Shown here piece by piece: positions 2,740-34,489 of a stretch of 37,308 bases of DNA. Within the stretch, counting starts at the first letter, position 1. Every line of letters starts with the position of its first letter. The stretch covers positions 1-37,308 of the IMG/VR virus record IMGVR_UViG_3300036401_000265; one strand, 5' to 3'. The translations under genes and the position numbers were made by a program. A model generated the notes under the pieces. It was not told the DNA's origin. It did not search any database and saw only the letters and a list, made by a program, of their open reading frames with translations. The DNA comes from a virus.

Positions 2740-4770
2740 ATGCCAGCCACGAAAACGGATCCGCAAGAACTGATCGGCAAGCGCCAGGTGCGCACCTTTG
2801 CGATCGATGGTGACCAGGCCAAACGGGCGACCTCGATCGACGAGGAGGCGCGCACCGTCGAGCTCGCTTTCGCTTCCGAGGTAAAGGTCGAGCGCTGGTT
2901 TGGTACCGAGATCCTTTTGTGCGGTGCCGAAAACGTGATGCTCGATCGGCTCAATGCAGGCGGCGCGCTTTTGTGCAACCACGAAACCGACGAACAGATC
3001 GGCGTGGTGGTGCGCGGCTCGGCACGCACGGATCCGGATCGCGTTTGCCGGGCGACGGTGAAGTTTTCCCAGCGCCAGGCGGGCCTCGACGAGTTCCAGG
3101 ACGTGAAGGACGGGATCAGATCTTTGGTTTCGACGGGCTATCTGATCCACGAGTACACCGTCGACGAAGATACCGAAACATACACGGCGACGCGGTGGGA
3201 ACCGCTCGAGGTTTCGCTGGTCTCGATCGCGGCCGACATTGAAGGCGCGGGCGTGGATCGCGGGCTCGATGCGGGCGGTATTGATCGACCACCAACAGCA
3301 AACGAGATCGCAAAATTCAAAGCACGGGCGCAGGCGCTCGGGCTCAAAGTGGTCGACAAAGAAGGAGCGCAACCAATGGCAAACGACGACAAAGAAAAAC
3401 AAGAGCGCGAACGGATCGCCGAGCTACCACCCGCACCGCCGCCGGAGCAACGGGCCAGCGCGGGCGCGGTGGTCTTAGCCAGCGAGATCATGGAGCTCGC
3501 CAAAGTGATCGACGCGCCTGGCGAAACGCTGGCGCAGGAGCTCGCCCGCGATGCGATCGCCGAGGGCAACACGCTCGCCGAGTTCCGGCAAAAGGTTTTT
3601 GAGAAACGGCGTGAGCGCGAGGCGGCGACCAAAACGCCCGTCGCCAAAACCGGAAACGTGATCGACTTGACGGAGCGCGAGAAAAAACAGTTTTCGATCC
3701 GCAACGCGATCCTCGCCGACTACAACATGCGCATGGGCCAAAAGGATCAAGAGTGCTTTGAGCTTGAGATCTCGAACGAGATCGAAAAACGCCTCGGCGC
3801 TATTCACTCCGGCTACACGCGCCACGGCGGCGTGCTGATACCCACCGGGATCGCGCTGCGCGGTGGGGCCGAGATGCAGGAGCGCCGCCTCGCGGCCCAG
3901 CAAGTGCGCGCAGGCCTGGCGGCCAAAACCACGGGCAGCGGCAAAGAGCTGGTATTCACCGAGTTCGGATCGTTCATCGAATTGCTGCGCAGCAAAGCTA
4001 TGGTGATCGCACTCGGCGCGACGGTCTTGCCGGGCTTGCAGGGCAACGTCGGTTTCCCGCGGCAGATCGGCGCGGGCACGCTCACCTGGGGAGTTGAAAA
4101 TCCCGGTGCCGACGTCGCCGAGTCCAACCTCACGCTCGACCAGGTGGTGCTCTCGCCGAAAACGGCGCAGTCGACCACCAGCTACTCGCGGCAACTACTG
4201 GCCCAGTCGGCGATCGACGTCGACGGTTTAGTCATGGATGACCTGGCGGCGATCAACGCGCTGGGCATCGACAAAGCGGCGATCGACGGCGTGGCACCCG
4301 CGCCCGTCGGGATCTACACGGCCTCCGGAGTCAACTCGGTGGCCTTTGGCGGCACGGTGACTTTCGATCACCTGGTGCAAATGGAAACCGAGGTCGCCAG
4401 CGACAACGCCGACGTGGGCACCATGGCCTATCTCTGCACGCCGCAAGTGCGCGGCAAGGCGAAGGTCACGCCCGAACTAATCGGCACGGGCTTCTCGCAA
4501 CCGATCTGGCGTGATGGTCAAGTCAATGGCTACCGGGCCGAGGTCACCAACCAGCTCGCGAAAAACCTGGGCGTCGCCACGAACGAGCACGAGATCATCT
4601 TTGGCGTTTGGGCGCAGCTCTTGATCGGCGAGTGGGGCGTGCTCGAGATCATCACCGACCCGTATGCCAAGAAAAAGCAAGGCATGATCGAAGTGACCTC
4701 GTTTTTACTCGCCGACGTGCAGCCACGCCACGGCGAAAGCTTCTGCAAAGGTACGGGCCTGATCCCGTAG
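2740..4770 (+). CDS. Prohead protease-major capsid protein fusion (HK97 type)
   Basis: A 676-residue fusion. Residues 30-170 are an HK97/U35-type prohead protease: H81 in LLCNHETDEQIG and S159 in PLEVSLVSIAAD match the catalytic His and Ser blocks. Residues 213-305 are charged and helical, like the scaffolding (delta) domain that is cut away. From about residue 307 to the end is an HK97-fold major capsid protein (ALGATVLPGLQGNVGFPRQ, NPGADVAESNLTLDQV, STTSYSRQLLAQS). Such fusions are known in other phages. A strong internal start at 3376 probably makes capsid without protease. A paralogue of the capsid part follows directly. Confidence 0.88.
   Translation: MPATKTDPQELIGKRQVRTFAIDGDQAKRATSIDEEARTVELAFASEVKVERWFGTEILLCGAENVMLDRLNAGGALLCNHETDEQIGVVVRGSARTDPDRVCRATVKFSQRQAGLDEFQDVKDGIRSLVSTGYLIHEYTVDEDTETYTATRWEPLEVSLVSIAADIEGAGVDRGLDAGGIDRPPTANEIAKFKARAQALGLKVVDKEGAQPMANDDKEKQERERIAELPPAPPPEQRASAGAVVLASEIMELAKVIDAPGETLAQELARDAIAEGNTLAEFRQKVFEKRREREAATKTPVAKTGNVIDLTEREKKQFSIRNAILADYNMRMGQKDQECFELEISNEIEKRLGAIHSGYTRHGGVLIPTGIALRGGAEMQERRLAAQQVRAGLAAKTTGSGKELVFTEFGSFIELLRSKAMVIALGATVLPGLQGNVGFPRQIGAGTLTWGVENPGADVAESNLTLDQVVLSPKTAQSTTSYSRQLLAQSAIDVDGLVMDDLAAINALGIDKAAIDGVAPAPVGIYTASGVNSVAFGGTVTFDHLVQMETEVASDNADVGTMAYLCTPQVRGKAKVTPELIGTGFSQPIWRDGQVNGYRAEVTNQLAKNLGVATNEHEIIFGVWAQLLIGEWGVLEIITDPYAKKKQGMIEVTSFLLADVQPRHGESFCKGTGLIP
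3376..4770 (+). CDS. Nested scaffold-capsid product from an internal start
   Basis: An in-frame ATG (residue 213 of the fusion) is preceded by GAAGGAG at 3361-3367 with an 8-base gap, the best ribosome-binding site in this gene. It would make a 464-residue protein comprising the charged scaffold-like segment plus the complete capsid fold, without the protease. This parallels lambda C/Nu3, where one reading frame yields a rare protease form and an abundant scaffold form. Here the short product would supply most of the shell subunits while the full-length product supplies protease. This is inferred from sequence; both products share the stop at 4770. Confidence 0.6.
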   Translation: MANDDKEKQERERIAELPPAPPPEQRASAGAVVLASEIMELAKVIDAPGETLAQELARDAIAEGNTLAEFRQKVFEKRREREAATKTPVAKTGNVIDLTEREKKQFSIRNAILADYNMRMGQKDQECFELEISNEIEKRLGAIHSGYTRHGGVLIPTGIALRGGAEMQERRLAAQQVRAGLAAKTTGSGKELVFTEFGSFIELLRSKAMVIALGATVLPGLQGNVGFPRQIGAGTLTWGVENPGADVAESNLTLDQVVLSPKTAQSTTSYSRQLLAQSAIDVDGLVMDDLAAINALGIDKAAIDGVAPAPVGIYTASGVNSVAFGGTVTFDHLVQMETEVASDNADVGTMAYLCTPQVRGKAKVTPELIGTGFSQPIWRDGQVNGYRAEVTNQLAKNLGVATNEHEIIFGVWAQLLIGEWGVLEIITDPYAKKKQGMIEVTSFLLADVQPRHGESFCKGTGLIP

Positions 4771-4851
4771 CTACCAACCGCACGGGCCGGGCGCGTCTTT
4801 TCCTGCAAGCGCTCGGCCGTCGCGGTGGACTTAGACCAGGAGGGCCACGCG

Positions 4852-5958
4852 GTGATCGATCTGACGACGCGAGAAAAAGAACGCTATTCGATCCGGCGGG
4901 CGATCGCGGTCGACGCTGCGCGCCGTTTAGGAGATCGGCGGGCGAGCTCGTTTGAGCTCGAGGTCTCGCAGGAGATCGAAAAACAACTCAATACCATTCA
5001 CGCGGGTTACGAGCGCCAGGGCGGCGTGCTCGTGCCCACTGGGATCGCGCTGGGCCAACCGCAAGAGCGCGCTGGTCTCGACACGGTCACGGCGACCAAA
5101 GGCAAGGAGCTTACTTTCGACGAGCCGGGATCTTTCATCGACTTGCTGCGGCCTCATACCTGGGTGCTCGCGCTGGGCGCGACGTTTTTGCCCGGGCTCA
5201 AGGGCGACGTGGGTTTCCCTCGCGAGGTGACAGGCGGCAAGGTGAACTGGGCCGCAGAGAATCCCGGGGCCGACACCGCCGCGCAGGATCTCACGCTCGA
5301 TCAGGTTTGGCTCACGCCGCGCACCTCCCAGTCGACGACCAGCTACTCGCGCCAACTCCTGGCGCAGTCGACGCCCTCGGTCGACGCGGTGGTGGCCAAC
5401 GACATCGCCAAAAACCACGCCGTCGCGCTCGACAAAGCGGCGCTGCAAGGCACTGGGCCAGCGCCCGTCGGCATCATGAACCAGGCGATCCAGACGGCCG
5501 ACTTTGCCACGACCTTGAGCTATCACGGCGCGGTCTTAATGGAAAACATGTTGCTGACGGCCAACGCCGGAGCCAACCGGGCCGGGATCGCGTACCTCGC
5601 GGATCCGCAATGGGCGCTCAACTACAAAACCACGGCGATCGGCACCGCGATCGGCATGCCCGCCTGGGCCGATAACCAGGTGAACGGCTACCGCGCCGAG
5701 ATCTCCCAAAACATGCCCGCGGGTTCGTTTCTCCTGGCCGACTGGCCGGAGCTCCTCGTGGGCGAGTGGGGCGTGCTCGAGATCATCACCGACCCGTATG
5801 CCAAGAAAAAGCAGGGCATGATCGAAGTGACCTCGTTTCTACTCAGCGACGTCGAACTCAAACACCTCAAGAGCTTTGTGAAGGCCTCCAATTTTGGCGT
5901 GCTACCGCTGGTCGCGCTGGCCGCCAGTGCTGAGAAAACCGAGAAGGGAAAAAGATAG
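4852..5958 (+). CDS. Second HK97-type major capsid protein paralogue
   Basis: A 368-residue capsid-fold protein closely similar to the C-terminal 370 residues of the upstream fusion (shared blocks FLPGLKGDVGFPRE, NPGADTA, TSQSTTSYSRQLLAQS, GEWGVLEIITDPYAKKKQG). I chose the GTG at 4852 because AGGAGG (4838-4843) lies 8 bases upstream, and because its first residues (IDLTTREKERYSIR) align with the IDLTEREKKQFSIR where the capsid part of the fusion begins. It therefore has neither protease nor scaffold domain. The 3' ends of the two genes are nearly identical at DNA level over about 80 bases. It may be a minor capsomer or decoration variant; role unproven. Confidence 0.85.
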   Translation: MIDLTTREKERYSIRRAIAVDAARRLGDRRASSFELEVSQEIEKQLNTIHAGYERQGGVLVPTGIALGQPQERAGLDTVTATKGKELTFDEPGSFIDLLRPHTWVLALGATFLPGLKGDVGFPREVTGGKVNWAAENPGADTAAQDLTLDQVWLTPRTSQSTTSYSRQLLAQSTPSVDAVVANDIAKNHAVALDKAALQGTGPAPVGIMNQAIQTADFATTLSYHGAVLMENMLLTANAGANRAGIAYLADPQWALNYKTTAIGTAIGMPAWADNQVNGYRAEISQNMPAGSFLLADWPELLVGEWGVLEIITDPYAKKKQGMIEVTSFLLSDVELKHLKSFVKASNFGVLPLVALAASAEKTEKGKR

Positions 5959-22736: not shown

Positions 22737-24152
22737 TTAAGCGCGCTTGCGTTTTTTGAAAGGGATGATCTCAGCCTCGCTGTAGTTTTCGATCAGCGAT
22801 GCAGCGCGCACCCGGCTCGAGTCGTCGGGGTTAATGTAGCGCCACGTCGTCGAGTCGTTTACGTGCCCGGCGAGTTTGCCCGCTTCGCCGACGCTCATGC
22901 CCGAGCGCACGAGGCGCGTGATCTGAGTGTGCCGCATATCATGACCACGGAAACCGTCAAGATTGATCGCACCGTTAGACCAGCGTTTTGCCTCGGCCTT
23001 GAGGGTTTGAAACGATCGTTTCGGAGCGTTCTTGAGCGGGTGCCGCACGAGCGCGTCGGTGCCGTCGGCGTTTTTGATCGGCTTGCCGTCCGGGTCGCGC
23101 TGCTTCACGTCATAGGTGAAAACGTGCTCGTCGAGTTCCTTGCCCGCGCAGCACGTGAGCAAGGCCTCGCGGACTCGCGCCGTCATGGCGCACTTTCGAT
23201 CCTGGCGCTGCTTGCCCTTGTACGAATAGACCATAAACGAATTGTTCTCGAAGTCGACGTCGCGCACCAACATGCGGCGCGCCTCGATCGAGCGCAGCGC
23301 GTGATCGAAACAGATCATGAGGTAGGGCAACAGGTGTTTCCGCTTGTCGTGCGTGGTGCAGTGATCGAGCAGCTCGAGCTCCTCGGCTTTGGTGGCGATG
23401 GTGATGCGCTTGACCTCGAGCGACGGGTTGATCAGATCCTTTGCGCCGTGCATCGGATTGCCAGTCGGCAACCAGCGCTCCTCGACGGCGAAGTTGAGCA
23501 TGCGCCGCAGCATGGCGAGCTCGCGGTGCACCGAGGCAAAACTCAGCTTGCGCACTTTGCCTTTGGCATCTTTCAACTCGACGCGCACCAGCTCGGTCGA
23601 CCCGGCTTTTTTGTACCTGGCGATCGCGGGCTGGCTCAAGCGCTCCTCCTTGTACTTGCGGATCTGGCCGATGGTGAACGACGAGACGAGTTTGTCTTTG
23701 CCGAAATAGCCGACCAACTGGGCGACGGTGCGGTGCGCACCTTGCCAGGACAACACGCCTTTGGTTTTGCGCCCGGCGGCGTCGAACTCGGCGGGCTGCA
23801 AGTGATCCTCCTTGTGATACTGGGCCAACTGGCCAAACGTGATCGTGCGAAAGTTGACTTTGCGATCGCGGTGGCCGCGCTCCTCGCCTTCCAGCTGGCG
23901 CTCGACGTCGAGCTCCTCGAGCATATCTTTGATGTGCTGATAGGCCTCGGTCTTGGTGCCGCTGATCGACTTGCGCGCCCGCTTCTTTCTTTTTGGTTTG
24001 CCGTTGTCGATCACCGTGAAAGTGATCACGCCGTAGATCGCGCCTGTGTTTGGATCCTTCCAAACGGTGCCGTCGCCGTTCGCTCGAGTGCGCACGATGC
24101 CGCCTCGGGTCTCCTTGTTTTTGTTTCTTGCCATTGCTTTTTGACCTTTCAT
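22737..24152 (-). CDS. int: Tyrosine site-specific integrase
   Basis: A 471-residue integrase. Residues about 20-75 form the N-terminal arm-binding domain (GTVWKDPNTGAIYGVITF, then KTEAYQHIKD); the middle is the core-binding SAM-like domain. The catalytic domain shows R287 (DHALRSIEAR), H404 and R407 (GHDMRHTQ), H430 (LAGHVN) and nucleophile Y439 (TWRYINP). It recombines attP with the host tRNA-Lys gene 0.5 kb away. The start at 24152 is nine bases after the upstream stop; a second ATG at 24134 has a better site (AAAGG). The neighbouring orphan gene duplicates its first domain. Confidence 0.93.
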   Translation of the reverse strand: MKGQKAMARNKNKETRGGIVRTRANGDGTVWKDPNTGAIYGVITFTVIDNGKPKRKKRARKSISGTKTEAYQHIKDMLEELDVERQLEGEERGHRDRKVNFRTITFGQLAQYHKEDHLQPAEFDAAGRKTKGVLSWQGAHRTVAQLVGYFGKDKLVSSFTIGQIRKYKEERLSQPAIARYKKAGSTELVRVELKDAKGKVRKLSFASVHRELAMLRRMLNFAVEERWLPTGNPMHGAKDLINPSLEVKRITIATKAEELELLDHCTTHDKRKHLLPYLMICFDHALRSIEARRMLVRDVDFENNSFMVYSYKGKQRQDRKCAMTARVREALLTCCAGKELDEHVFTYDVKQRDPDGKPIKNADGTDALVRHPLKNAPKRSFQTLKAEAKRWSNGAINLDGFRGHDMRHTQITRLVRSGMSVGEAGKLAGHVNDSTTWRYINPDDSSRVRAASLIENYSEAEIIPFKKRKRA

Positions 24153-24161
24153 TTTTTGGTA

Positions 24162-24494
24162 TTAGGTGGTTTGTGCTCGCGGCTCTTGGGCCAACACGTC
24201 GAGCAAAGTTTTGAGCAGCGAGCGGAGAAGCGCGCTGGTTTGCGGATCGATCCAAAAGGAGCCGCCGTTAGCACGCTCGACGGCGAGCTCGGCGTCGACC
24301 TCAGCGCGCAGATCTTTGATGTGCTGATAGGCCTCGGTCTTGCTATGCGCGAGTCGCGCCCGCCGCTTACGTTTGCCGCTCGCCGTCGTGAAAGTGATCA
24401 CGCCGTAGATCTTGCCGCTGCGTGGCTCCGTCCAGATCGATCCGGTGCCGTTTGCGCGAGTGCGCCCGCGCTTTTTGTTTTTGCTTTCTTTCAT
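24162..24494 (-). CDS. Orphan integrase arm-binding-domain protein
   Basis: A 110-residue protein whose first 65 residues match the integrase N-terminus (RTRANGTGSIWTEPRSGKIY, GVITFT, HSKTEAYQHIKDL) and whose last 40 residues are unrelated. Stretches of DNA such as GATGTGCTGATAGGCCTCGG are identical in both genes, so this is a fairly recent partial duplication. It has no catalytic domain. It should bind the same arm-type sites as integrase; one tandem pair of such sites (24519-24543) lies just upstream of its own start. A competitor, RDF-like regulator or autorepressor is possible; decay of a duplicated integrase is the alternative. Confidence 0.65.
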   Translation of the reverse strand: MKESKNKKRGRTRANGTGSIWTEPRSGKIYGVITFTTASGKRKRRARLAHSKTEAYQHIKDLRAEVDAELAVERANGGSFWIDPQTSALLRSLLKTLLDVLAQEPRAQTT

Positions 24495-24518
24495 ATTCTC
24501 TCTTTCGTTTTTGGGGTC

Positions 24519-24543
24519 AGCTATGCCGCGCAGCTATGCCGCG
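24519..24543. promoter_or_regulatory. Arm-type integrase sites, left pair
   Basis: AGCTATGCCGCG occurs twice in tandem with a 13-bp period (24519-24530 and 24532-24543). The same word pair recurs on the other side of the attP core. Paired direct repeats flanking a core are the usual layout of arm sites bound by the integrase N-terminal domain. They also lie 25 bases upstream of the orphan gene's start. Confidence 0.65.
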
Positions 24544-24681
24544 GGCGTGCAATAGTATGCGAAAGCCTGAGAAGCGGTGGCAAGGCGCGGCGAGCGAGTT
24601 TCGTGTTTTTGTTCAATGAATGGTTGAGTTTTGATGAGGTTTGGGAAGCGGTGCTAAGCGCTGAAAAGACTACCTTGCGCC

Positions 24682-24728
24682 GACTCTTAATCAGCGGGTC
24701 GCAGGTTCGATCCCTGCACGGCCCACCA
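24682..24728 (+). other. attP core: 3' end of a tRNA-Lys(CUU) gene
   Basis: From GACTCTTAATCAGCGGGTCG to CCCACCA this is the tRNA 3' half: anticodon loop CTCTTAA, 3' anticodon stem, variable loop, T arm GCAGG-TTCGATC-CCTGC, acceptor strand ACGGCCC, discriminator A and CCA. Upstream bases do not complete the tRNA (no GGGCCGT acceptor strand, and the 5' anticodon stem has a mismatch). Integration here would restore the host tRNA gene. Confidence 0.9.
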
Positions 24729-24772
24729 AAAAACCTCAACAAAAACGCACTTTCTCAACTCGCCGACCTGCC

Positions 24773-24797
24773 AGCTATGCCACGGCACTATGCCGCG
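24773..24797. promoter_or_regulatory. Arm-type integrase sites, right pair
   Basis: AGCTATGCCACG (24773-24784) and CACTATGCCGCG (24786-24797) repeat the left-arm word in the same orientation with the same 13-bp period, each with one or two mismatches. They begin 45 bases to the right of the core. Confidence 0.6.
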
Positions 24798-25169
24798 GTC
24801 GACCTGGCCACCAAGGCACGGCCGCTCGACGTTTCTGAGCGCCAAAAAATAATTCAAAAAAAAGTACCCGATCGACGCTGCGGGCGGCCTCCTGGCCGTC
24901 GTGGCCGAACCGTTTCTGTTTTTTGACAACCGCACCGCACTCCCGCGCCGTCGAGGTCGCTCGCGTTTGAGTGATGGCAAACGCGAGTTGTTCTCCTAAA
25001 TCCTCGACGACGTGGGCCACGGGCGCGCCCGGCGACGGGGCACGCGGATCCAAGGCGGGCAAGTACTCGACGACCAGCGCGGCGTTTTCTAGCCATAGCT
25101 TTCGCCGTTCACGCCACGAGTGCAAACCAGAATTGGATCCGCGCACCGTCGTTTAGCGGGCGCGAGGTT
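24798..25169. other. Non-coding or decayed region right of attP
   Basis: No convincing gene. A leftward open frame crosses it, and its stretch over about 24940-25130 (WRERRKLWLENAALVVEYLP followed by ALDPRAPSPGAPVAHVVED) looks protein-like, but it has no ribosome-binding site and runs into att sequence, so it may be a gene remnant. An AT-rich patch (AATAATTCAAAAAAAAG, about 24847-24863) could be an IHF-like or bending site of the attP arm. A lone TTGACA at 24926 has no partner -10 box. Confidence 0.35.
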
Positions 25170-25724
25170 CCTTGAGCCAAGCAACCTGAGAGCACCAAGT
25201 CGTCTGAGCGAGCCAAGCGGTGAGAGAGCACCAACGATCCATGAGCGAGCCTTTATTGCGGGAAGGAAACAGAACAAACGAGCGAGCCACCTTTGATGAG
25301 AGCACCATTTAATAGGAGCGAGCCAGTTGGTGTGAGAGCACCAAATGTACCGAGCGAGCCAATGTGCTCGAGAGCACCATTGCCGCCGAGCGAGCCGAGG
25401 TACTCGAGCGCACCAAGCTCGACGAGCGAGCCACCCTAATTGAGATCACCGTATGGAGAGAGCGGAGCCATAATTCACGAGCGCACCAACGCCGATGAGC
25501 GAGCCAGGCGATTTGAGAATCACCATTGAATCGGAGCGAGCCACTGTTGCGGAGAGCACCAAAAAATTAGAGCGAGCCATTCATGGTGAGAGAACCAATT
25601 TCAACGAGCGAGCCAGAGTAGCCGAGGTCACCATGCGCGATGAGCGAGCCAACGAGCTAGAGAGCACCATTTGTTCAGAGCGAGCCATGTTGCGCGGAGA
25701 GCACCACGAAACCGGAGCGATCAA
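25170..25724 (+). repeat. Alternating 10-mer array on an 18-bp period (A/B array)
   Basis: About 31 copies of two 10-mers alternate strictly. Motif A is GAGCGAGCCA (starts 25170, 25206, 25243, 25280, 25316, 25352, 25388, 25424, 25460, 25497, 25534, 25570, 25606, 25642, 25678, 25715). Motif B is GAGAGCACCA (starts 25188, 25224, 25261, 25298, 25334, 25370, 25406, 25442, 25479, 25515, 25552, 25588, 25624, 25660, 25696). Each is followed by 8 unrelated bases, giving 18 bp per step, with five steps of 19. Eleven A copies are exact. All irregularities are +1 insertions, so no reading frame runs through. Too short-spaced for CRISPR. Binding array or structured RNA are possible. Confidence 0.92.
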
Positions 25725-25727
25725 AAT

Positions 25728-26528
25728 ATGCAACTTGAACCAATCCAAAAACTAGCCAAGGACATACGCGAGGCGAGCACGACTTTGTCGGCGGGCGAGG
25801 CGCGCTTTCTCGTCGACGCTTACTACTCAATGCAGGAGGAGCGCATCCGGGCGGCGGCGCAAGTGCGCGCCTTGACGACGAGCGGCGAGCCGAACTCGGT
25901 CTTGCAATGGCTCTTCACGCAAAACGAAACGCTCGAGCAACAGATCAAGCGGGCGCTGCACAGTTACGCGAGCGCCGACACCGTGGGCGCGTGGATGCTC
26001 GGGATCGTCGGCGTGGGCCCGGTGATCGCGGCGGGCCTGTTAGCGCATATCGACATCACCAAAGCGCCCACGGTGGGCCATATCTGGCGCTTTGCCGGGC
26101 TCGATCCGACGGTCAAGTGGGGCAAGGGCAAAAAACGGCCGTGGAACGCTTCACTAAAAACGCTGGCCTGGAAGATCGGCGAGTCGTTTGTGAAAAGCTG
26201 CAACCTCGAACGATCGTTCTATGGGCCAATCTACAAACAGCGCAAAGAATATGAGACGGCGCGCAACGAGCGCGGCGAGCTCGCTGATCAGGCGGCCGCC
26301 GTTTTGCAGTCGAAAAAAATCGGCAAAGAAACCGAGGCCTTCAAAGCTTACAGCGCGGGCCGTTTGCCCGCTGCGCACATTCACGCCCGCGCATGCCGTT
26401 ACACGGTGAAGCTTTTTCTCTCGCACGTTCACGAGAAAATGTATGAGACCAGGTTCGGCATGCCCGCGCCCAAACCTTATCCAATCCAGTTCTTGGGTCA
26501 CCACGATCGCGTCGCGGCTCCGGAGTAA
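25728..26528 (+). CDS. IS110-type transposase C-terminal-domain protein (phage family)
   Basis: A 266-residue protein. I use the ATG at 25728; the last array unit supplies GGAG 10 bases upstream. Residues 93-160 (IVGVGPVIAAGLLAHIDI, HIWRFAGLDPTVKWGKGKKR) match the helix-hairpin-helix and following block of the Transposase_20 (IS110/IS116/IS902 C-terminal) domain. The N-terminal DEDD/RuvC-like domain of real IS110 transposases is absent: the first 85 residues are only helical. The usual Ser-containing stretch is replaced by WGKGKK, so a transposition reaction is doubtful. Proteins like this are recurrent in phages and often mislabelled transposase. Nucleic-acid binding is likely; function unknown. 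Confidence 0.7.
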   Translation: MQLEPIQKLAKDIREASTTLSAGEARFLVDAYYSMQEERIRAAAQVRALTTSGEPNSVLQWLFTQNETLEQQIKRALHSYASADTVGAWMLGIVGVGPVIAAGLLAHIDITKAPTVGHIWRFAGLDPTVKWGKGKKRPWNASLKTLAWKIGESFVKSCNLERSFYGPIYKQRKEYETARNERGELADQAAAVLQSKKIGKETEAFKAYSAGRLPAAHIHARACRYTVKLFLSHVHEKMYETRFGMPAPKPYPIQFLGHHDRVAAPE

Positions 26529-26532
26529 AAAC

Positions 26533-27024
26533 ATGCGCCGACACCGAACCAAAACTTGCAATACCTGCCCGGGCGGGCCTCGTGATCTACCGCTCGAGGC
26601 TTTCGGCATTGATCGCTCGCGACCTGACAACCGCAACCCACGGTGCCAGGAGTGCGTGCGCCGGATCTCGCAGGAGCGCCGGGCGGCGGTGCGAGGCGGG
26701 CCAGCGCGCCCGGTGCGCAAGTGGATCTCGCGCCAACGGGCGGGCATACCGCTCGAGGCCTTTGTGCAGCGACCAGGCGCAGCGCTCACGGTGATCGCGC
26801 CGCTGGTGTTGAAAGCGATCGACACGTCGGGCGCGTGCTCCCAGCGCGAGCTCGTGCGGTTCGCGACGGCGCACTTGCCGGGCCGGGTGCATGAGGCGCT
26901 GGTGCAAGAACAGATCGGCGAGGCGCTCGGCGAGTTATTCCAACGACGGGCGATCGCCACGCGAGGCGAGGCCGAGGGCCGAGTCTATTTTCGTCGCGAC
27001 TCTTTTGTGCGGCGCTGCACGTGA
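26533..27024 (+). CDS. Zinc-finger protein with helical C-terminus
   Basis: A 163-residue protein. C9-x2-C12 (CNTC) and C38-x2-C41 (CQEC) frame an LPLEAF...D.RNPRC pattern typical of small phage zinc-ribbon proteins related to HNH-associated fingers; no HNH His-Asn-His motif follows. Residues 85-163 look like a winged-helix or helical bundle (ACSQRELVRFATAHLPGRVH). The start is an ATG 5 bases after the previous stop. Probably a DNA-binding accessory protein. Confidence 0.6.
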   Translation: MRRHRTKTCNTCPGGPRDLPLEAFGIDRSRPDNRNPRCQECVRRISQERRAAVRGGPARPVRKWISRQRAGIPLEAFVQRPGAALTVIAPLVLKAIDTSGACSQRELVRFATAHLPGRVHEALVQEQIGEALGELFQRRAIATRGEAEGRVYFRRDSFVRRCT

Positions 27025-28046: not shown

Positions 28047-28763
28047 ATGCAAACCAGCGACGCGCAAAAAAAATTCGCGACCTTCGCACCGCCGCTCGGC
28101 GACGCCCGGCGGCATGCGCTCACGCTCGAGCTCGACGAGCAAGTGTTTGTGTTTCTAAATAGTTGGGCCGCGGCGCAGCACGTGAGCGTCGACGTCGTGC
28201 TGGCGCAGGCGGCGGCGCAGCTGGCGCAGCAACTCACGGCCGACACGTACACCGCGGGCACCTCGGCACGGGCCTTGCGGTTTTTAGATTTAGATCTAGA
28301 TAGATTGATAGAAGGATCGATCGATCGATCTCAGGCGGCGCGTGCTTGTGGATCTTCACTTTGTCCGAGTGCCTATCCGCAAGCGATGGACTCGAGCGCG
28401 CCGCCTGCCTCGCCGCCCGCCGACCCCGAAAACGAACGTCGCCAGGAGATCCTCGGCTATTACACCGCCCTCACGGGAAACCGGATCAAGGCGAGTGATT
28501 ACAAGGCGCTGCGCGAGGTTTTCGACTTGCCTGATCTGATCATCCAAGCCGGGATTCTGCACGCGCTTTGTTACGCGACCAGGCCGATCGGTTCGTTCGC
28601 CTATTGCGTCAAAGCCATGGACAACTTTCTCGACGCCGCGATCGACCTCGAGGCGGCGTGCGCGCTCCTCATCGACAAGCTCTTACTCAAACGCAGCACG
28701 GGCCAGCTGGTGCTCCCACTCGCTGGCGAAAAACTTTTGATCGGAGACTTCAAAGCAAAATGA
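28047..28763 (+). CDS. Putative phage replication protein
   Basis: A 238-residue protein. I prefer the ATG at 28047 (AGGG 10 bases upstream) to an in-frame GTG at 27957, because the extra codons fall in the origin-like AT-rich sequence. Residues about 130-200 (RRQEILGYYTALTGNRIKAS, then FDLPDLIIQAGI...PIGSFAYCVKAM) match the small helical domain found in DnaD-like/replication-associated proteins of phages and ICEs ('YY..LTGNR....D...L......I..GI......R..SF.YC'). The middle is low complexity (LDLDLDRLIEGSIDRS). Likely an initiator or helicase-loader analogue at the adjacent origin; moderate certainty. Confidence 0.5.
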   Translation: MQTSDAQKKFATFAPPLGDARRHALTLELDEQVFVFLNSWAAAQHVSVDVVLAQAAAQLAQQLTADTYTAGTSARALRFLDLDLDRLIEGSIDRSQAARACGSSLCPSAYPQAMDSSAPPASPPADPENERRQEILGYYTALTGNRIKASDYKALREVFDLPDLIIQAGILHALCYATRPIGSFAYCVKAMDNFLDAAIDLEAACALLIDKLLLKRSTGQLVLPLAGEKLLIGDFKAK

Positions 28764-30508
28764 CTGAACCGCAAACCTACTGGAAAAAGATCAAGGTGCC
28801 GCCGCCGCTCCTCGAGGCGGGCTGGAAGTTGATCAAGCGCGACACGTCGGCACCGTTTGCGCTGGTCAACGAAAAGCTCGACCAGGATACAGGCGGCTTT
28901 CCGGATCCGCAGGAGGCGATCGCGGCCGCGCAGGCGCTCACCGTCGAACTCGAGGAGGCCGCAGCGATCGCCAGCGAGGGCCAACTCACGAACGGCGAGC
29001 GGCCGACGGTTTTACCCGTGCAGCTGGTCGACGAGGGCTGGCGCTTGCAATACCGCAAAGGCGGCAAACCACCACGGCCGATCTTTGCCGAGCGTGGCGA
29101 GCTGCGCACCGAGTCGCATGCCGACGTCGCCGACACCGTGGCCGAGGCGATCAAGCTCGAGCGCGAACGGCAAGAGGAGATCGAACGGCGCGAGCTGGGC
29201 CACGCCGCGATCGCTGCGCAAAGTGACGTCGACGCCGGGCTCGAGTCCTTTGTCGCTCGCGGCCAGGCGGCGCAAAAGGCCGTCGACGAACTCCTGCCCG
29301 GCAATGGCGACCACGCCACGCCCGCACGCCTGGCGCTCGAGCGCATCCGCACGGACGGCGGCACGCAGCAGCGATCGCTATTCGACCAGGCAGTGCTCGA
29401 CGACTATGCCGAGATCATGCAGGCGGGCGACGAGTTCCCCGCCGTCGACGTTTTTTTCGATGGGGCCGAGTACTGGCTCGCCGATGGTTTCTACCGTCTC
29501 GAGGCGCGGCGCAAGCTGGGCCAGAACGCGATCGGCGCGCACGTGCGCCAGGGCTCGCAGCGTGACGCTATTCTTTTTTCTTTAGGCGCCAACGCCCGGC
29601 ATGGGCTGCCGCGCACGCCGGAAGATAAGCGGCGCGCCGTCCTGGTGATGCTGCGGGACCCGGAGTGGGCCAGCTGGTCGGATGCCGTGATTGCCGAGCG
29701 CGTGCGCGTGTCGGTGCCGCTCGTGCGCAAGTTGCGCCACCAGGTCGACGAGGAAACAACGGATCACGGTGAGGCGGTGAGCGGCGAAACGAAACCGACC
29801 AAACGCCGCGGCCGTGATGGTCGCGTCGTCGACACCAGCAAGATCGGCAAGCGCGCCCAGGGCGGGCGCAGCGCGGATCCACAACTCGCGCTCGAGCCAG
29901 CGCGGCCGACACTTTGCGAAGGATGCAACGTCGAGATCGGGGCCAACGACTACCGCAACGAGGCGGGCCTGTGTTGGGACTGCGCAGGCAAGGGCAAGAA
30001 AAAGTCGAGCCGCGCCGCCTCAACTGAGAGCGAAAAATCGGCAACGGCGGCACCTTTGGAAACACCGCGGCCGACGCTCGCCGAGTTGAGCCAAGGACGA
30101 TCGCTCAAAATCAGTTTGTATATGCTGGCGAACCACCCGGGCCGCGCTTTCGTTTCGGTGACGGCCACGCCGTCGACCTTGCGAGCGCGTGGATTTTCGG
30201 GCGACCTGGAACTCGCCGCCGACGATCTCAGCTTGCCGCCGTCGCTGCTCGAGTTGGTGCGCATCGCACTCGAGGCCTCGACGCGCAAACCTGCACGCAA
30301 GGCGACGAAAAAAGCGGCGGCGCAGGTGCTGAAAAAGGCGGTGCGCAAAGCGATCACAAAAAAGGAGGCTGCCGCGATCGTGCGTCGCCTGCAACGGAAA
30401 CCCGCGAGCAAGTCGAGCAAAGCGACGCGCAAGCCTGGCAAAACCGTCCCAGCGTCACCCAGGCGCAAACCCGCCGCACGTAAAGGCAAGCCACGAACGA
30501 AAAAGTGA
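28760..30508 (+). CDS. ParB-like domain protein with Zn finger and histone-like tail
   Basis: A 582-residue protein starting in an ATGA overlap. Residues about 208-300 carry a ParB/Srx-like core (EFPAVDVFFDGAEYWLADGF, YRLEARRKLG) followed by a helical HTH-like part (WSDAVIAERVRVSVPLVRKL), as in phage ParB-type DNA-binding proteins. A treble-clef-like CEGC...CWDC occurs at about 385-408. The last 75 residues are very rich in Lys, Arg and Ala (KATKKAAAQVLKKAVRKA), like a histone H1 tail. No ParA partner is present, so partition is unlikely; regulation or DNA modification/condensation are options. Confidence 0.65.
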   Translation: MTEPQTYWKKIKVPPPLLEAGWKLIKRDTSAPFALVNEKLDQDTGGFPDPQEAIAAAQALTVELEEAAAIASEGQLTNGERPTVLPVQLVDEGWRLQYRKGGKPPRPIFAERGELRTESHADVADTVAEAIKLERERQEEIERRELGHAAIAAQSDVDAGLESFVARGQAAQKAVDELLPGNGDHATPARLALERIRTDGGTQQRSLFDQAVLDDYAEIMQAGDEFPAVDVFFDGAEYWLADGFYRLEARRKLGQNAIGAHVRQGSQRDAILFSLGANARHGLPRTPEDKRRAVLVMLRDPEWASWSDAVIAERVRVSVPLVRKLRHQVDEETTDHGEAVSGETKPTKRRGRDGRVVDTSKIGKRAQGGRSADPQLALEPARPTLCEGCNVEIGANDYRNEAGLCWDCAGKGKKKSSRAASTESEKSATAAPLETPRPTLAELSQGRSLKISLYMLANHPGRAFVSVTATPSTLRARGFSGDLELAADDLSLPPSLLELVRIALEASTRKPARKATKKAAAQVLKKAVRKAITKKEAAAIVRRLQRKPASKSSKATRKPGKTVPASPRRKPAARKGKPRTKK

Positions 30509-32648: not shown

Positions 32649-33923
32649 ATGAACAACGGCATCCAGAAAAAGTTTCGCAACCGGATCAAGGGCTACGCGA
32701 CCAAAGCGGCGGGCGAGTTCAACTTCAACCCGCTGAACTATCGCCGCCACGGTGACGCGCAGCGCAGCGCTTTGCGCACCATGCTCGGCGACGTGGGCTG
32801 GGTGCAGGGAGTGATCGAAAACAAACGCACCGGAAACTTGATCGACGGGCATGCGCGGATCGAGGAGGCCTTGCGCGATGATCCGAAACAGAAGGTGCCT
32901 TACCTGGTCGTCGACTTGTCGCCCGCCGAGGAGCGCGCCGTGCTGGCGACGCTCGACCCGATCGGGGCCATGGCTGAAGTTGATCAAGCGCTACTCGAGC
33001 AACTCTACAACCAAACGATCGTCGAGATGCCGGGCCTCGAGGAGCTGCTCACTTCCCTGCACTACGACGGCGAGGAGGTCGGCGCGGCACCTGACAAAAC
33101 CGTGGCGCTCGAGCGCGCTGCAGCGCTGCAGCGAAAGTGGAAAGTTAAGCGCGGCCAGGTCTGGCAGATCGGCGCGCACCGTTTAATGTGCGGCGACGCG
33201 CTCGACAAAAACGACGTTGCGCAGCTGATGATGGGCCGCCGCGCCGAGATCTGTTTCAGTTCGCCGCCGTACAACATCGGCGGCAACACGGTGCGCACTC
33301 CTTACGCCCAGGGGGACGTCGGCTCGCCGTACCTCGAGGAGGCCGACGATCTTGGCGAGGTCGCGTACTTTGAGCTGCTCAAAGGCTTCACCGAAAACGC
33401 GCTCAAGCACGTCGACTACTGCCTGGTGAATATCCAGTCGCTCGCGGCGAACAAGCGGGCGATCATCGACTACCAGGCCCACTTTCGCGATCGCTTTGCC
33501 GACGTGGCGATCTGGCACAAAACCAACTTCCCGCCTGCCATGGCCGAGCGCGTCATGAGTGCGGCCTTTGAGTTCGTGCTGATCTTTGCCAGCAAAACGA
33601 AACCGAGTCGGGCCATAACCACGGGCGACGTATTCCGCGGCACGGTGAGCAACGTGGTGATGCTGGCGAACAACGCGGGCAACGAGTTCGCCGAGCTGCA
33701 TGGCGCGGCCTTCAGCGTCGAGTTTTGCCAGCACTTTGTCGAGACGTTTTCGGCGGCGTCGGTGCTCGATCTGTTCGTCGGCACAGGCACGACGCTCGTG
33801 GTGGCCGAACACCTGGGCCGGGTCGGCTTTGGCATGGATAAAGAGCCCACCTATTGCGCGCTCACGCTCGAGCGCATGCGCGCCACGTTTCCCAAACTGA
33901 AGATCGGAAAAGTTAGACCATGA
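32649..33923 (+). CDS. ParB-like domain fused to a DNA methyltransferase
   Basis: A 424-residue fusion. Residues about 10-130 are a ParB/Srx-like domain (FNPLNYRRHGDAQRSALRTM, NLIDGHARIEEAL, VVDLSPAEERAVLATLDP). Residues 165-424 are a beta-class amino-methyltransferase: motif IV S205-PPY208 (CFSSPPYNIGG) comes before motif I D374-LFVGTGTT. The SPPY form is commonest in N4-cytosine enzymes, so m4C is favoured over m6A. Such fusions are frequent in phages and may methylate phage DNA against host restriction. A ParB-only paralogue follows immediately. Confidence 0.85.
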   Translation: MNNGIQKKFRNRIKGYATKAAGEFNFNPLNYRRHGDAQRSALRTMLGDVGWVQGVIENKRTGNLIDGHARIEEALRDDPKQKVPYLVVDLSPAEERAVLATLDPIGAMAEVDQALLEQLYNQTIVEMPGLEELLTSLHYDGEEVGAAPDKTVALERAAALQRKWKVKRGQVWQIGAHRLMCGDALDKNDVAQLMMGRRAEICFSSPPYNIGGNTVRTPYAQGDVGSPYLEEADDLGEVAYFELLKGFTENALKHVDYCLVNIQSLAANKRAIIDYQAHFRDRFADVAIWHKTNFPPAMAERVMSAAFEFVLIFASKTKPSRAITTGDVFRGTVSNVVMLANNAGNEFAELHGAAFSVEFCQHFVETFSAASVLDLFVGTGTTLVVAEHLGRVGFGMDKEPTYCALTLERMRATFPKLKIGKVRP

Positions 33924-34489
33924 AAAACGGCAACCAGGCAAAGCAAAAAAAGTTCCGCATCCGGATCACGGGTTTCGAGACCAAGGCGGCCGACGCTTTC
34001 AAGTTCAACCCGCTGAATTATCGGCGACACGGCGAGGCCCAGCGCGACGCCTTGCGCACCATGCTCGGCGACGTGGGCTGGGTGCAGGGCGTGATCGAAA
34101 ACAAACGCACCGGGAACTTGATCGACGGGCATGCGCGCATCGAGGAGGCCTTGCGCGATGATCCGCAACAGCCCGTGCCGTTTCTGGTGGTCGACTTGTC
34201 ACCCGCCGAGGAGCGCGCCGTGCTGGCGACGCTCGACCCGATCGGCGCAATGGCCGAAACGGATCCCGCGGTGGTGGCTCAACTCTTTCAAGAGACGATC
34301 GCCGAGATGCCGGGCCTCGAGGAGCTGCTCACGGCGCTGCACGGCGAGGAGGATGATGAGAAGCCCAAAAGCAAAACCGTCGAGTTCAAACCCAGCTTCA
34401 AGATCGTGATCGAGTGCACCAGCCAACGGCATCAGAAAAAGGTCTCACGTTTGCTCGAGGCCCAGGGCATCGAACACGTGGCAAAATAA
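33920..34489 (+). CDS. Stand-alone ParB-like paralogue
   Basis: A 189-residue protein that starts in the TAGACCATGA junction. Residues 25-135 are nearly the same as the ParB-like domain of the methyltransferase upstream (RTMLGDVGWVQGVIENKRTG; long stretches identical in DNA), so the pair is a tandem duplication. In place of the methyltransferase it has a short C-terminal domain (FKIVIECTSQRHQKKVSRLL) seen in other phage ParB-type proteins. It may bind the same DNA or heterodimerise with the fusion; role unknown. Confidence 0.75.
   Translation: MKNGNQAKQKKFRIRITGFETKAADAFKFNPLNYRRHGEAQRDALRTMLGDVGWVQGVIENKRTGNLIDGHARIEEALRDDPQQPVPFLVVDLSPAEERAVLATLDPIGAMAETDPAVVAQLFQETIAEMPGLEELLTALHGEEDDEKPKSKTVEFKPSFKIVIECTSQRHQKKVSRLLEAQGIEHVAK

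What the first reader, a model, noticed from the sequence alone, without database searches (positions are those of the whole stretch)
25170..25724. Strictly alternating A/B 10-mer array with random 8-nt spacers on an 18-bp period
About 31 short motifs alternate without exception between GAGCGAGCCA and GAGAGCACCA. They share GAG....CCA and differ in the inner four bases (CGAG or AGCA). Each step is 10 + 8 bases; only five steps are 19. The 8-base spacers show no similarity to each other. Three stop codons among about 56 spacer codons is what random sequence gives, and +1 insertions at 25234-25242, 25271-25279, 25460, 25515 and 25696 break the frame, so it is not a working hexapeptide-repeat gene. 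CRISPR, iterons of about 20 bp and simple tandem repeats do not fit. Conserved motifs with free spacers at fixed distance suggest selection on motif and spacing: a cooperative protein-binding array (two subunits alternating), an RNA scaffold, a sponge for a host regulator, or a segregation or replication site.
Basis: seen in the sequence. Interest (0 to 1): 0.92.

Follow-up and report, generated by a model that had tools for sequence, protein, structure and literature searches.

The report
Phage TIGR-TasA dual-spacer guide RNA array
The alternating repeats are a TIGR array, a string of tiny two-part RNA guides stored by a bacterial virus next to the gene for its RNA-guided DNA-binding protein (TasA); the kind of system was published in 2025, but relatives found here give a rare clue to what such systems aim at: a competing mobile element in the host.

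Summary
The array (25174-25720) is a dual-repeat TIGR array: edge repeat GAGCGAGCCA, loop repeat GAGAGCACCA, 8-nt spacers, 15 tigRNA units. [quoted passage not shown] Seven bases later starts a 266-aa solo-Nop protein (25728-26528). Its only strong matches in solved structures, by sequence and by fold, are TasH and TasR, then IS110 transposases. It is therefore TIGR-TasA (Faure 2025, PMC12045711): a new member of a known kind, in a temperate-phage record. A period of exactly 36 was the best lag in 83 of 100 loci. Edge and loop repeats share their end motifs, and edge repeats show compensated pairs. Related phages gain and lose whole A-loop-B units, not half-units. Neither this phage genome nor 1.9 Mb of kin phages contain targets. 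In one cultured host (Acidobacteriaceae KBS 96), two of six guides of a prophage TIGR-TasA hit early genes of one 12.8-kb integrated, satellite-like element (16/16 and 14/16 bases, 0.9 kb apart). I propose nuclease-free, RNA-guided silencing of competing mobile elements; that function is inferred from one case.

The parts
25174..25720 (+). TIGR array, 15 tigRNA units (edge - spacer A - loop - spacer B), 36-nt period
25174..25179 (+). 5'-truncated edge repeat GAGCCA that opens the array
   Evidence: [quoted passage not shown]
25206..25215 (+). first full edge repeat GAGCGAGCCA (14 full copies: 25206, 25243, 25280, 25316, 25352, 25388, 25424, 25460 with one extra base, 25497, 25534, 25570, 25606, 25642, 25678; 11 are exact)
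25188..25197 (+). first loop repeat GAGAGCACCA (15 copies: 25188, 25224, 25261 degenerate, 25298, 25334, 25370, 25406, 25442, 25479, 25515 with one extra base, 25552, 25588, 25624, 25660, 25697)
25715..25720 (+). 3'-truncated edge repeat GAGCGA that closes the array, 7 bases before the TasA start codon
25728..26528 (+). tasA: 266-aa solo-Nop (Transposase_20-like) protein with no nuclease domain
   Evidence: PF02371 21.9 bits; PHROG 4285 E=4e-50; TasH E=2e-11 and TasR E=1e-10, profile 8e-22; fold matches TasH Z 18.7, TasR Z 17.3
22740..24152 (-). tyrosine integrase of the phage (context, not part of the system)
   Evidence: PF00589 E=3e-19, PHROG 1 E=3e-36
24683..24728 (+). 46-bp tRNA-Lys(CTT) 3'-end fragment, putative attP (context)
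   Evidence: sequence; 95% match to tRNA-Lys of mycobacteriophages
28568..30508 (+). ParB-like protein, about 2 kb downstream of tasA (context; possible but untested relative of TasParB)
   Evidence: PHROG 1033 E=5e-15

Best explanation
The locus is a TIGR-TasA system. The array is transcribed as one precursor with tasA and cut in the middle of each edge repeat into 36-nt tigRNAs: half edge, spacer A, loop, spacer B, half edge. A dimer of the solo-Nop protein TasA holds one tigRNA through the GA (box D-like) and CCA (box C-like) ends of the two repeats. Spacer A then pairs with one strand and spacer B with the other strand of a 16-bp DNA site of the form A + reverse complement of B. TasA has no nuclease, so the most likely effect is binding, bending and blocking of the target. 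Its likely role in phages is silencing early genes of competing or parasitic mobile elements in the same host. Shown here: array anatomy, Nop/Tas homology and fold, family-wide repeat constraint, unit-wise array turnover, no targets in this phage or its kin, and one host genome in which two guides hit one mobile element. Established for TasR/TasH/TasA by others: 36-nt processing (all three) and two-strand pairing (TasR, TasH). Inferred: transcription here, blocking, and the anti-element role. The confidence given is for the identity (TIGR-TasA); for the anti-element role alone it is about 0.45.
For: Truncated edge repeats at both ends and alternating 10-nt repeats with 8-nt spacers match the published TIGR definition. 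The adjacent protein matches TasH/TasR in sequence and fold, well above IS110 (Z about 13) and everything else (Z below 7). 83 of 100 loci have 36 as best lag, and 2809 of 2939 spacers are 8 nt. Edge and loop ends covary (GA/GA, GT/GT, GC/GC; CCA/CCA, CCG/CCG) and edge pairs 3-8 and 4-7 change in compensated ways. Ten related phages keep A-B links across the loop in 168 of 187 cases but B-A links across the edge in 85 of 220, so the loop-centred unit is the functional one. KBS 96: guide 2 matches 16/16 and guide 5 matches 14/16 within 0.9 kb of one integrated element. None of 41 decoy pairings matches exactly in that genome. The same six guides give one exact match in 150 other genomes.
Against: No RNA or binding data for this phage. 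No target was found for the window's own 15 guides; its host is unknown. Three other host genomes or MAGs gave no credible self-genome target. The anti-element role rests on one host genome, and guide 5 has two mismatches at the outer edge of spacer A. The edge/loop label used in the pair counts was itself chosen by pairing.
Confidence: 0.95

Rival explanations
1. TIGR-TasA acts as an RNA-guided DNA-bending helper of the phage integrase (suggested by Faure et al. for TasA). Here the integrase, a tRNA-Lys attP-like fragment and the array lie within 3 kb.
For: Close neighbourhood in the window.
Against: Only about 11 of 61 viral records with this TasA encode a recognisable tyrosine integrase anywhere, though many are fragments and serine integrases were not searched. 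No guide matches the attP region or the phage genome with 2 or fewer mismatches. The array stores 15 different guides.
Confidence: 0.06
2. TasA guides regulate genes of the host chromosome or of the phage itself.
For: TasA lacks a nuclease, so binding could regulate transcription; Halomonas guide 3 matches 15/16 bases inside host ccmF.
Against: The Halomonas hit is about what chance gives (roughly 0.1 expected by simple estimate). 945 guides give no gap-free exact match in 1.9 Mb of their own and kin phage contigs, and 1-mismatch counts are no higher than for decoys. Four host genomes or MAGs gave no other host-gene match.
Confidence: 0.15
3. DNA-level array: cooperative protein-binding, sponge, partition or replication site.
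For: Fixed 18-bp spacing; a ParB-like gene lies about 2 kb downstream.
Against: Ends are truncated exactly at edge repeats; two repeat kinds with covarying ends and compensated pairs; a Nop-domain RNA-binding protein adjoins; unit-wise turnover cut at the edge repeat. None of this follows from a DNA-binding array.
Confidence: 0.02
4. Decayed protein repeat, assembly artefact or other ordinary repeat.
For: 36 is a multiple of 3.
Against: Stops in all six frames of the window array; over 92 arrays stop counts are close to those of spacer-shuffled arrays (2680 against 2891). The same architecture recurs in dozens of independent contigs and in isolate genomes.
Confidence: 0.01

Closest known systems
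TIGR-TasA (e.g. Flavonifractor plautii FpTIGR; Faure et al. 2025, PMC12045711)
   Same: Solo-Nop effector beside an array of alternating edge and loop repeats; arrays open and close with truncated edge repeats; about 36-nt units
   Different: Spacers are 8 nt here (9 in FpTIGR); box motifs are GA and CCA rather than the UG and CCA of TasR arrays; 15 units, array upstream of the gene and running to within 7 bases of its start
TasA-TasParB operons with 10-nt repeats (same paper, fig. S14 as described in the text)
   Same: TasA with 10-nt edge and loop repeats; a ParB-like gene lies nearby
   Different: The ParB-like gene is about 2 kb downstream behind other genes, not directly operonic; membership as TasParB not established
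TasH of Salicola phage CGphi29 (SpTIGR) and TaTasR
   Same: Nop domain with significant sequence and fold match; SpTIGR guides also carry 16 nt of spacer
   Different: No HNH or RuvC domain in the window protein
IS110/IS621 bridge-RNA transposases and box C/D snoRNPs
   Same: Nop-type RNA-binding domain; IS110 fold match Z about 13; two-strand target recognition by split guides in IS110
   Different: No DEDD transposase domain, no insertion-sequence ends, many guides in an array instead of one bridge RNA
CRISPR arrays
   Same: Repeats separated by variable guide spacers
   Different: Two alternating 10-nt repeats, 8-nt spacers, no Cas genes recognised in the annotated ORFs, new units appear inside the array rather than at one end

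Membership tests
TIGR-Tas | Two distinct alternating 8-12-nt repeats separated by short (about 9, up to 12 nt) spacers | tested here: met
   10-nt edge and loop repeats, 8-nt spacers
[quoted passage not shown]
   GAGCCA at 25174, GAGCGA at 25715; same in the KBS 96 prophage
TIGR-Tas | Adjacent gene for a Nop-domain Tas protein | tested here: met
   tasA 25728-26528; sequence and fold match to TasH/TasR
TIGR-Tas | Box C/D-like ends shared by, and covarying between, edge and loop repeats | tested here: met
   across distinct loci
TIGR-Tas | Extra base pair in the edge repeat supported by covariation | tested here: met
   pairs 3-8 (GC/AT/TA) and 4-7 (CG/TA/AT) in edge repeats; caveat: edges were labelled by pairing in that count
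TIGR-Tas | Predicted rho-independent terminator after the array (typical, not obligatory) | tested here: not met
   array runs into tasA; no terminator-like site between array and gene. Described as typical in the paper; arrays upstream of the gene are also described there
TIGR-Tas | Processing into 36-nt tigRNAs bound by Tas | not testable with these tools
   needs RNA sequencing; unit length fits
TasA subtype | No RuvC or HNH nuclease domain | tested here: met
   266 aa; aligned part is TasH 65-306 and TasR 110-320; upstream frame runs into the array
IS110 transposase | N-terminal DEDD transposase domain | tested here: not met
   only the C-terminal Transposase_20 motif is matched; aligned IS621 range is 125-319
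CRISPR-Cas | One repeat type with Cas genes | tested here: not met
   two alternating repeats; no Cas family among annotated ORFs
cf-PICI satellite (the KBS 96 target element) | Integrase, AlpA/Xis-like regulator, replication gene and capsid genes without tail genes on a 10-15-kb island with att repeats | tested here: inconclusive
   integrase, HTH_3, HTH_17, replication-O-like (E 0.004), TerS, HK97 capsid, protease, 12.77 kb between 27-bp tRNA-Glu repeats; no TerL or portal found, so a decayed prophage is not excluded; the defining list is from general knowledge

The most novel reading that the evidence does not exclude
Phage TIGR-TasA arrays are nuclease-free, RNA-guided silencers aimed at early genes of satellites or competing integrated elements, a phage-borne counterpart of type IV CRISPR. 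KBS 96 would be the first lysogen in which guide and resident target are both known, and arrays would evolve by gain and loss of whole dual-spacer units inside the array.
Probability: 0.45. Interest if true: 0.8.

Novelty: new member of a known kind. Interest (0 to 1): 0.55.

Why it matters
TIGR-Tas is a recently described RNA-guided system whose natural targets and array dynamics were called open questions by its discoverers. This window is one more phage example. Following it gave a cultured host where guide and candidate target coexist (KBS 96), and a set of phages in which array turnover can be read. Both make the function of nuclease-free TasA directly testable.

Tried and rejected
Protein repeat: rejected by stops in all frames. 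Rfam: no family over its gathering score in 24400-26600. Promoter and terminator scans: nothing above shuffles. Phage GenBank collection by protein: no match. Self-targeting by the window's guides: best matches no better than decoys or shuffled genome. Kin-phage targeting: no exact gap-free match, counts like decoys. Halomonas NO4 guides against own genome: one 15/16 match in ccmF, judged chance. Pelomonas and Hydrogenophaga MAGs: none; the positive-control 16-mer was drawn from the Hydrogenophaga locus and was found in that MAG. Window guides against 151 Acidobacteriota: scattered chance matches, no two close together. Host of the window by its tRNA-Lys fragment: no exact match in 61 Acidobacteriota or 398 Pseudomonadota, best 96%. 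Integrase-helper idea: integrase found in only about 11 of 61 records. The gene after tasA has a weak endonuclease VII-like match, which I read as only its zinc-ribbon part; Pfam found nothing, so it is not put forward as a separate effector nuclease.

Full report
OBSERVATION. The array is real and as regular as described. Parsing by hand gives 31 repeats in strict alternation: a truncated GAGCCA (25174), then loop and edge copies in turn, and a final truncated GAGCGA (25715-25720). Spacers are 8 nt, with five single-base insertions. GAGCGAGCCA occurs 11 times in the window, all in the array (shuffle mean 0.25). The paired motif occurs 17 times against none in shuffles. All six frames contain stops.

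IDENTITY. An ORF starts 7 bases after the array (25728-26528, 266 aa). Pfam sees only the C-terminal IS110 motif (21.9 bits). PHROGs sees a phage family labelled 'transposase' (E=4e-50). In the PDB its only sequence matches are TasH (E=2e-11) and TasR (E=1e-10). A ten-sequence profile raises TasR to 8e-22, with IS621 and ISCro4 far behind. The AlphaFold model (pLDDT 83.8) matches TasH and TasR chains in all top eleven Foldseek places. By VIA-align it scores Z 18.7 and 17.3, then IS110 at about 13, then unrelated helical rows below 7. The published definition of a TIGR array is two alternating 8-12-nt repeats, short spacers, a 5'-truncated first and 3'-truncated last edge repeat, and a Nop-domain gene beside it (PMC12045711). 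All of these are met. The protein lacks the nuclease part, so it is TasA. The truncated ends identify GAGCGAGCCA as the edge and GAGAGCACCA as the loop.

FAMILY. The viral collection held at least 204 relatives of this TasA; isolates include Halomonas sp. NO4 and Acidobacteriaceae KBS 96. In 83 of 100 held loci the best repeat lag is exactly 36. 2809 of 2939 parsed spacers are 8 nt. Repeat ends covary between edge and loop within a locus, and the edge's inner pairs 3-8 and 4-7 change in compensated ways, while the loop has an A.A at 4-7 in most loci. The edge label in that count was chosen by pairing, so it leans towards the result; the truncated ends of the window and KBS 96 arrays and the turnover data below support the label independently. 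Searched against the held kin-phage contigs, most other window proteins found no or only distant matches while TasA found relatives in 57 entries, so tasA and its array appear to move between phage backbones.

ARRAY TURNOVER. Ten related phage contigs share collinear series of units with gains and losses in between, not at one end. When spacer A is shared, the following B across the loop is shared in 168 of 187 cases. When B is shared, the next A across the edge is shared in only 85 of 220 (odds ratio 14; pairs of phages are not independent). The A-loop-B unit is therefore the unit of gain and loss. Where homologous, spacers are 95.6% identical, against 92.6% for the tas gene, so they do not drift freely.

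TARGETS. From the published cut geometry (8-nt 3' overhangs) I derived the target as spacer A followed by the reverse complement of spacer B. The window's own guides have no match with 2 or fewer mismatches in the window's genome, like decoys. 945 guides give no exact gap-free match in 1.9 Mb of these phages. In KBS 96, whose prophage carries six guides, guide 2 matches 16/16 at 6,329,962 and guide 5 matches 14/16 at 6,329,052. Guide 6 matches 13/16 at 6,329,237, which is weak. Guide 2 lies near the start of an HTH_17/excisionase-like gene and guide 5 in a replication-O-like gene. The element has an integrase, an HTH_3 regulator, TerS, HK97 capsid and protease, and lies between 27-bp tRNA-Glu repeats 12.77 kb apart. 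None of 41 decoy pairings gave an exact match there. The six guides gave one exact match in 150 other genomes. A rough estimate of the joint chance of an exact hit plus a second 14-base hit within 1 kb is about one in a million, computed after the fact. The TIGR prophage itself carries a homologue of the C-terminal half of the targeted rep-like gene (59% identity). At guide 5's site that homologue differs at many positions (sequences), so the guide tells the element from the phage. Halomonas NO4 and two MAGs gave no credible target.

MECHANISM AND LIMITS. Shown: anatomy, homology, fold, repeat constraint, turnover, one candidate target element. From the literature: 36-nt processing, dimer binding, two-strand pairing, near-180-degree bend. 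Inferred: transcription of this array, repression without cleavage, and the anti-element role. The host of the window's phage is unknown, and its guides have no known target.

VERDICT. The added value lies in the relatives: unit-wise turnover and a testable target.

Noticed in passing
window 24683-24728 and 22740-24152: A 46-bp tRNA-Lys(CTT) 3' end beside a tyrosine integrase looks like the phage attP; host not identified (best 96% match in one Pseudomonadota genome).
   Followed up: partly
L101 (KBS 96 6,319,361-6,332,131): 12.8-kb integrated element with capsid, protease and TerS but no recognised TerL, portal or typical tail genes, between tRNA-Glu repeats: a cf-PICI-like satellite or a decayed prophage.
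   Followed up: partly
L031, L032, L033, L045, L049, L050, L054, L058, L059, L061: Related phage arrays share collinear tigRNA units with internal gain and loss of whole units; a system for studying TIGR array evolution.
   Followed up: yes
L017 1790-2430: In a Pelomonas MAG the loop repeat is only 8 nt (GACGTGCA-like), giving a 34-nt period; the array runs to the TasA start codon.
   Followed up: partly
L006, L011, L012 (TasA proteins): Some TasA proteins carry an insert of roughly 60-80 residues after the conserved GLDPT motif, and others an acidic insert before the EPH motif.
   Followed up: no
window 26530-27024: Gene directly after tasA encodes a small protein with a CxxC...CxxC zinc ribbon and a weak endonuclease VII match; no catalytic domain found.
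   Followed up: partly
window 32649-34489: A ParB/methyltransferase-type gene is followed by a second copy of its ParB-like N-terminal part (PHROG 498/620).
   Followed up: no
window 2740-5958: Two neighbouring ORFs both match the same major head protein family (PHROG 617), a full-length and a shorter copy.
   Followed up: no
all parsed arrays: Spacers are less G+C-rich than their flanks in 56 of 64 loci, and spacer position 1 is A or T in 65% of cases.
   Followed up: partly
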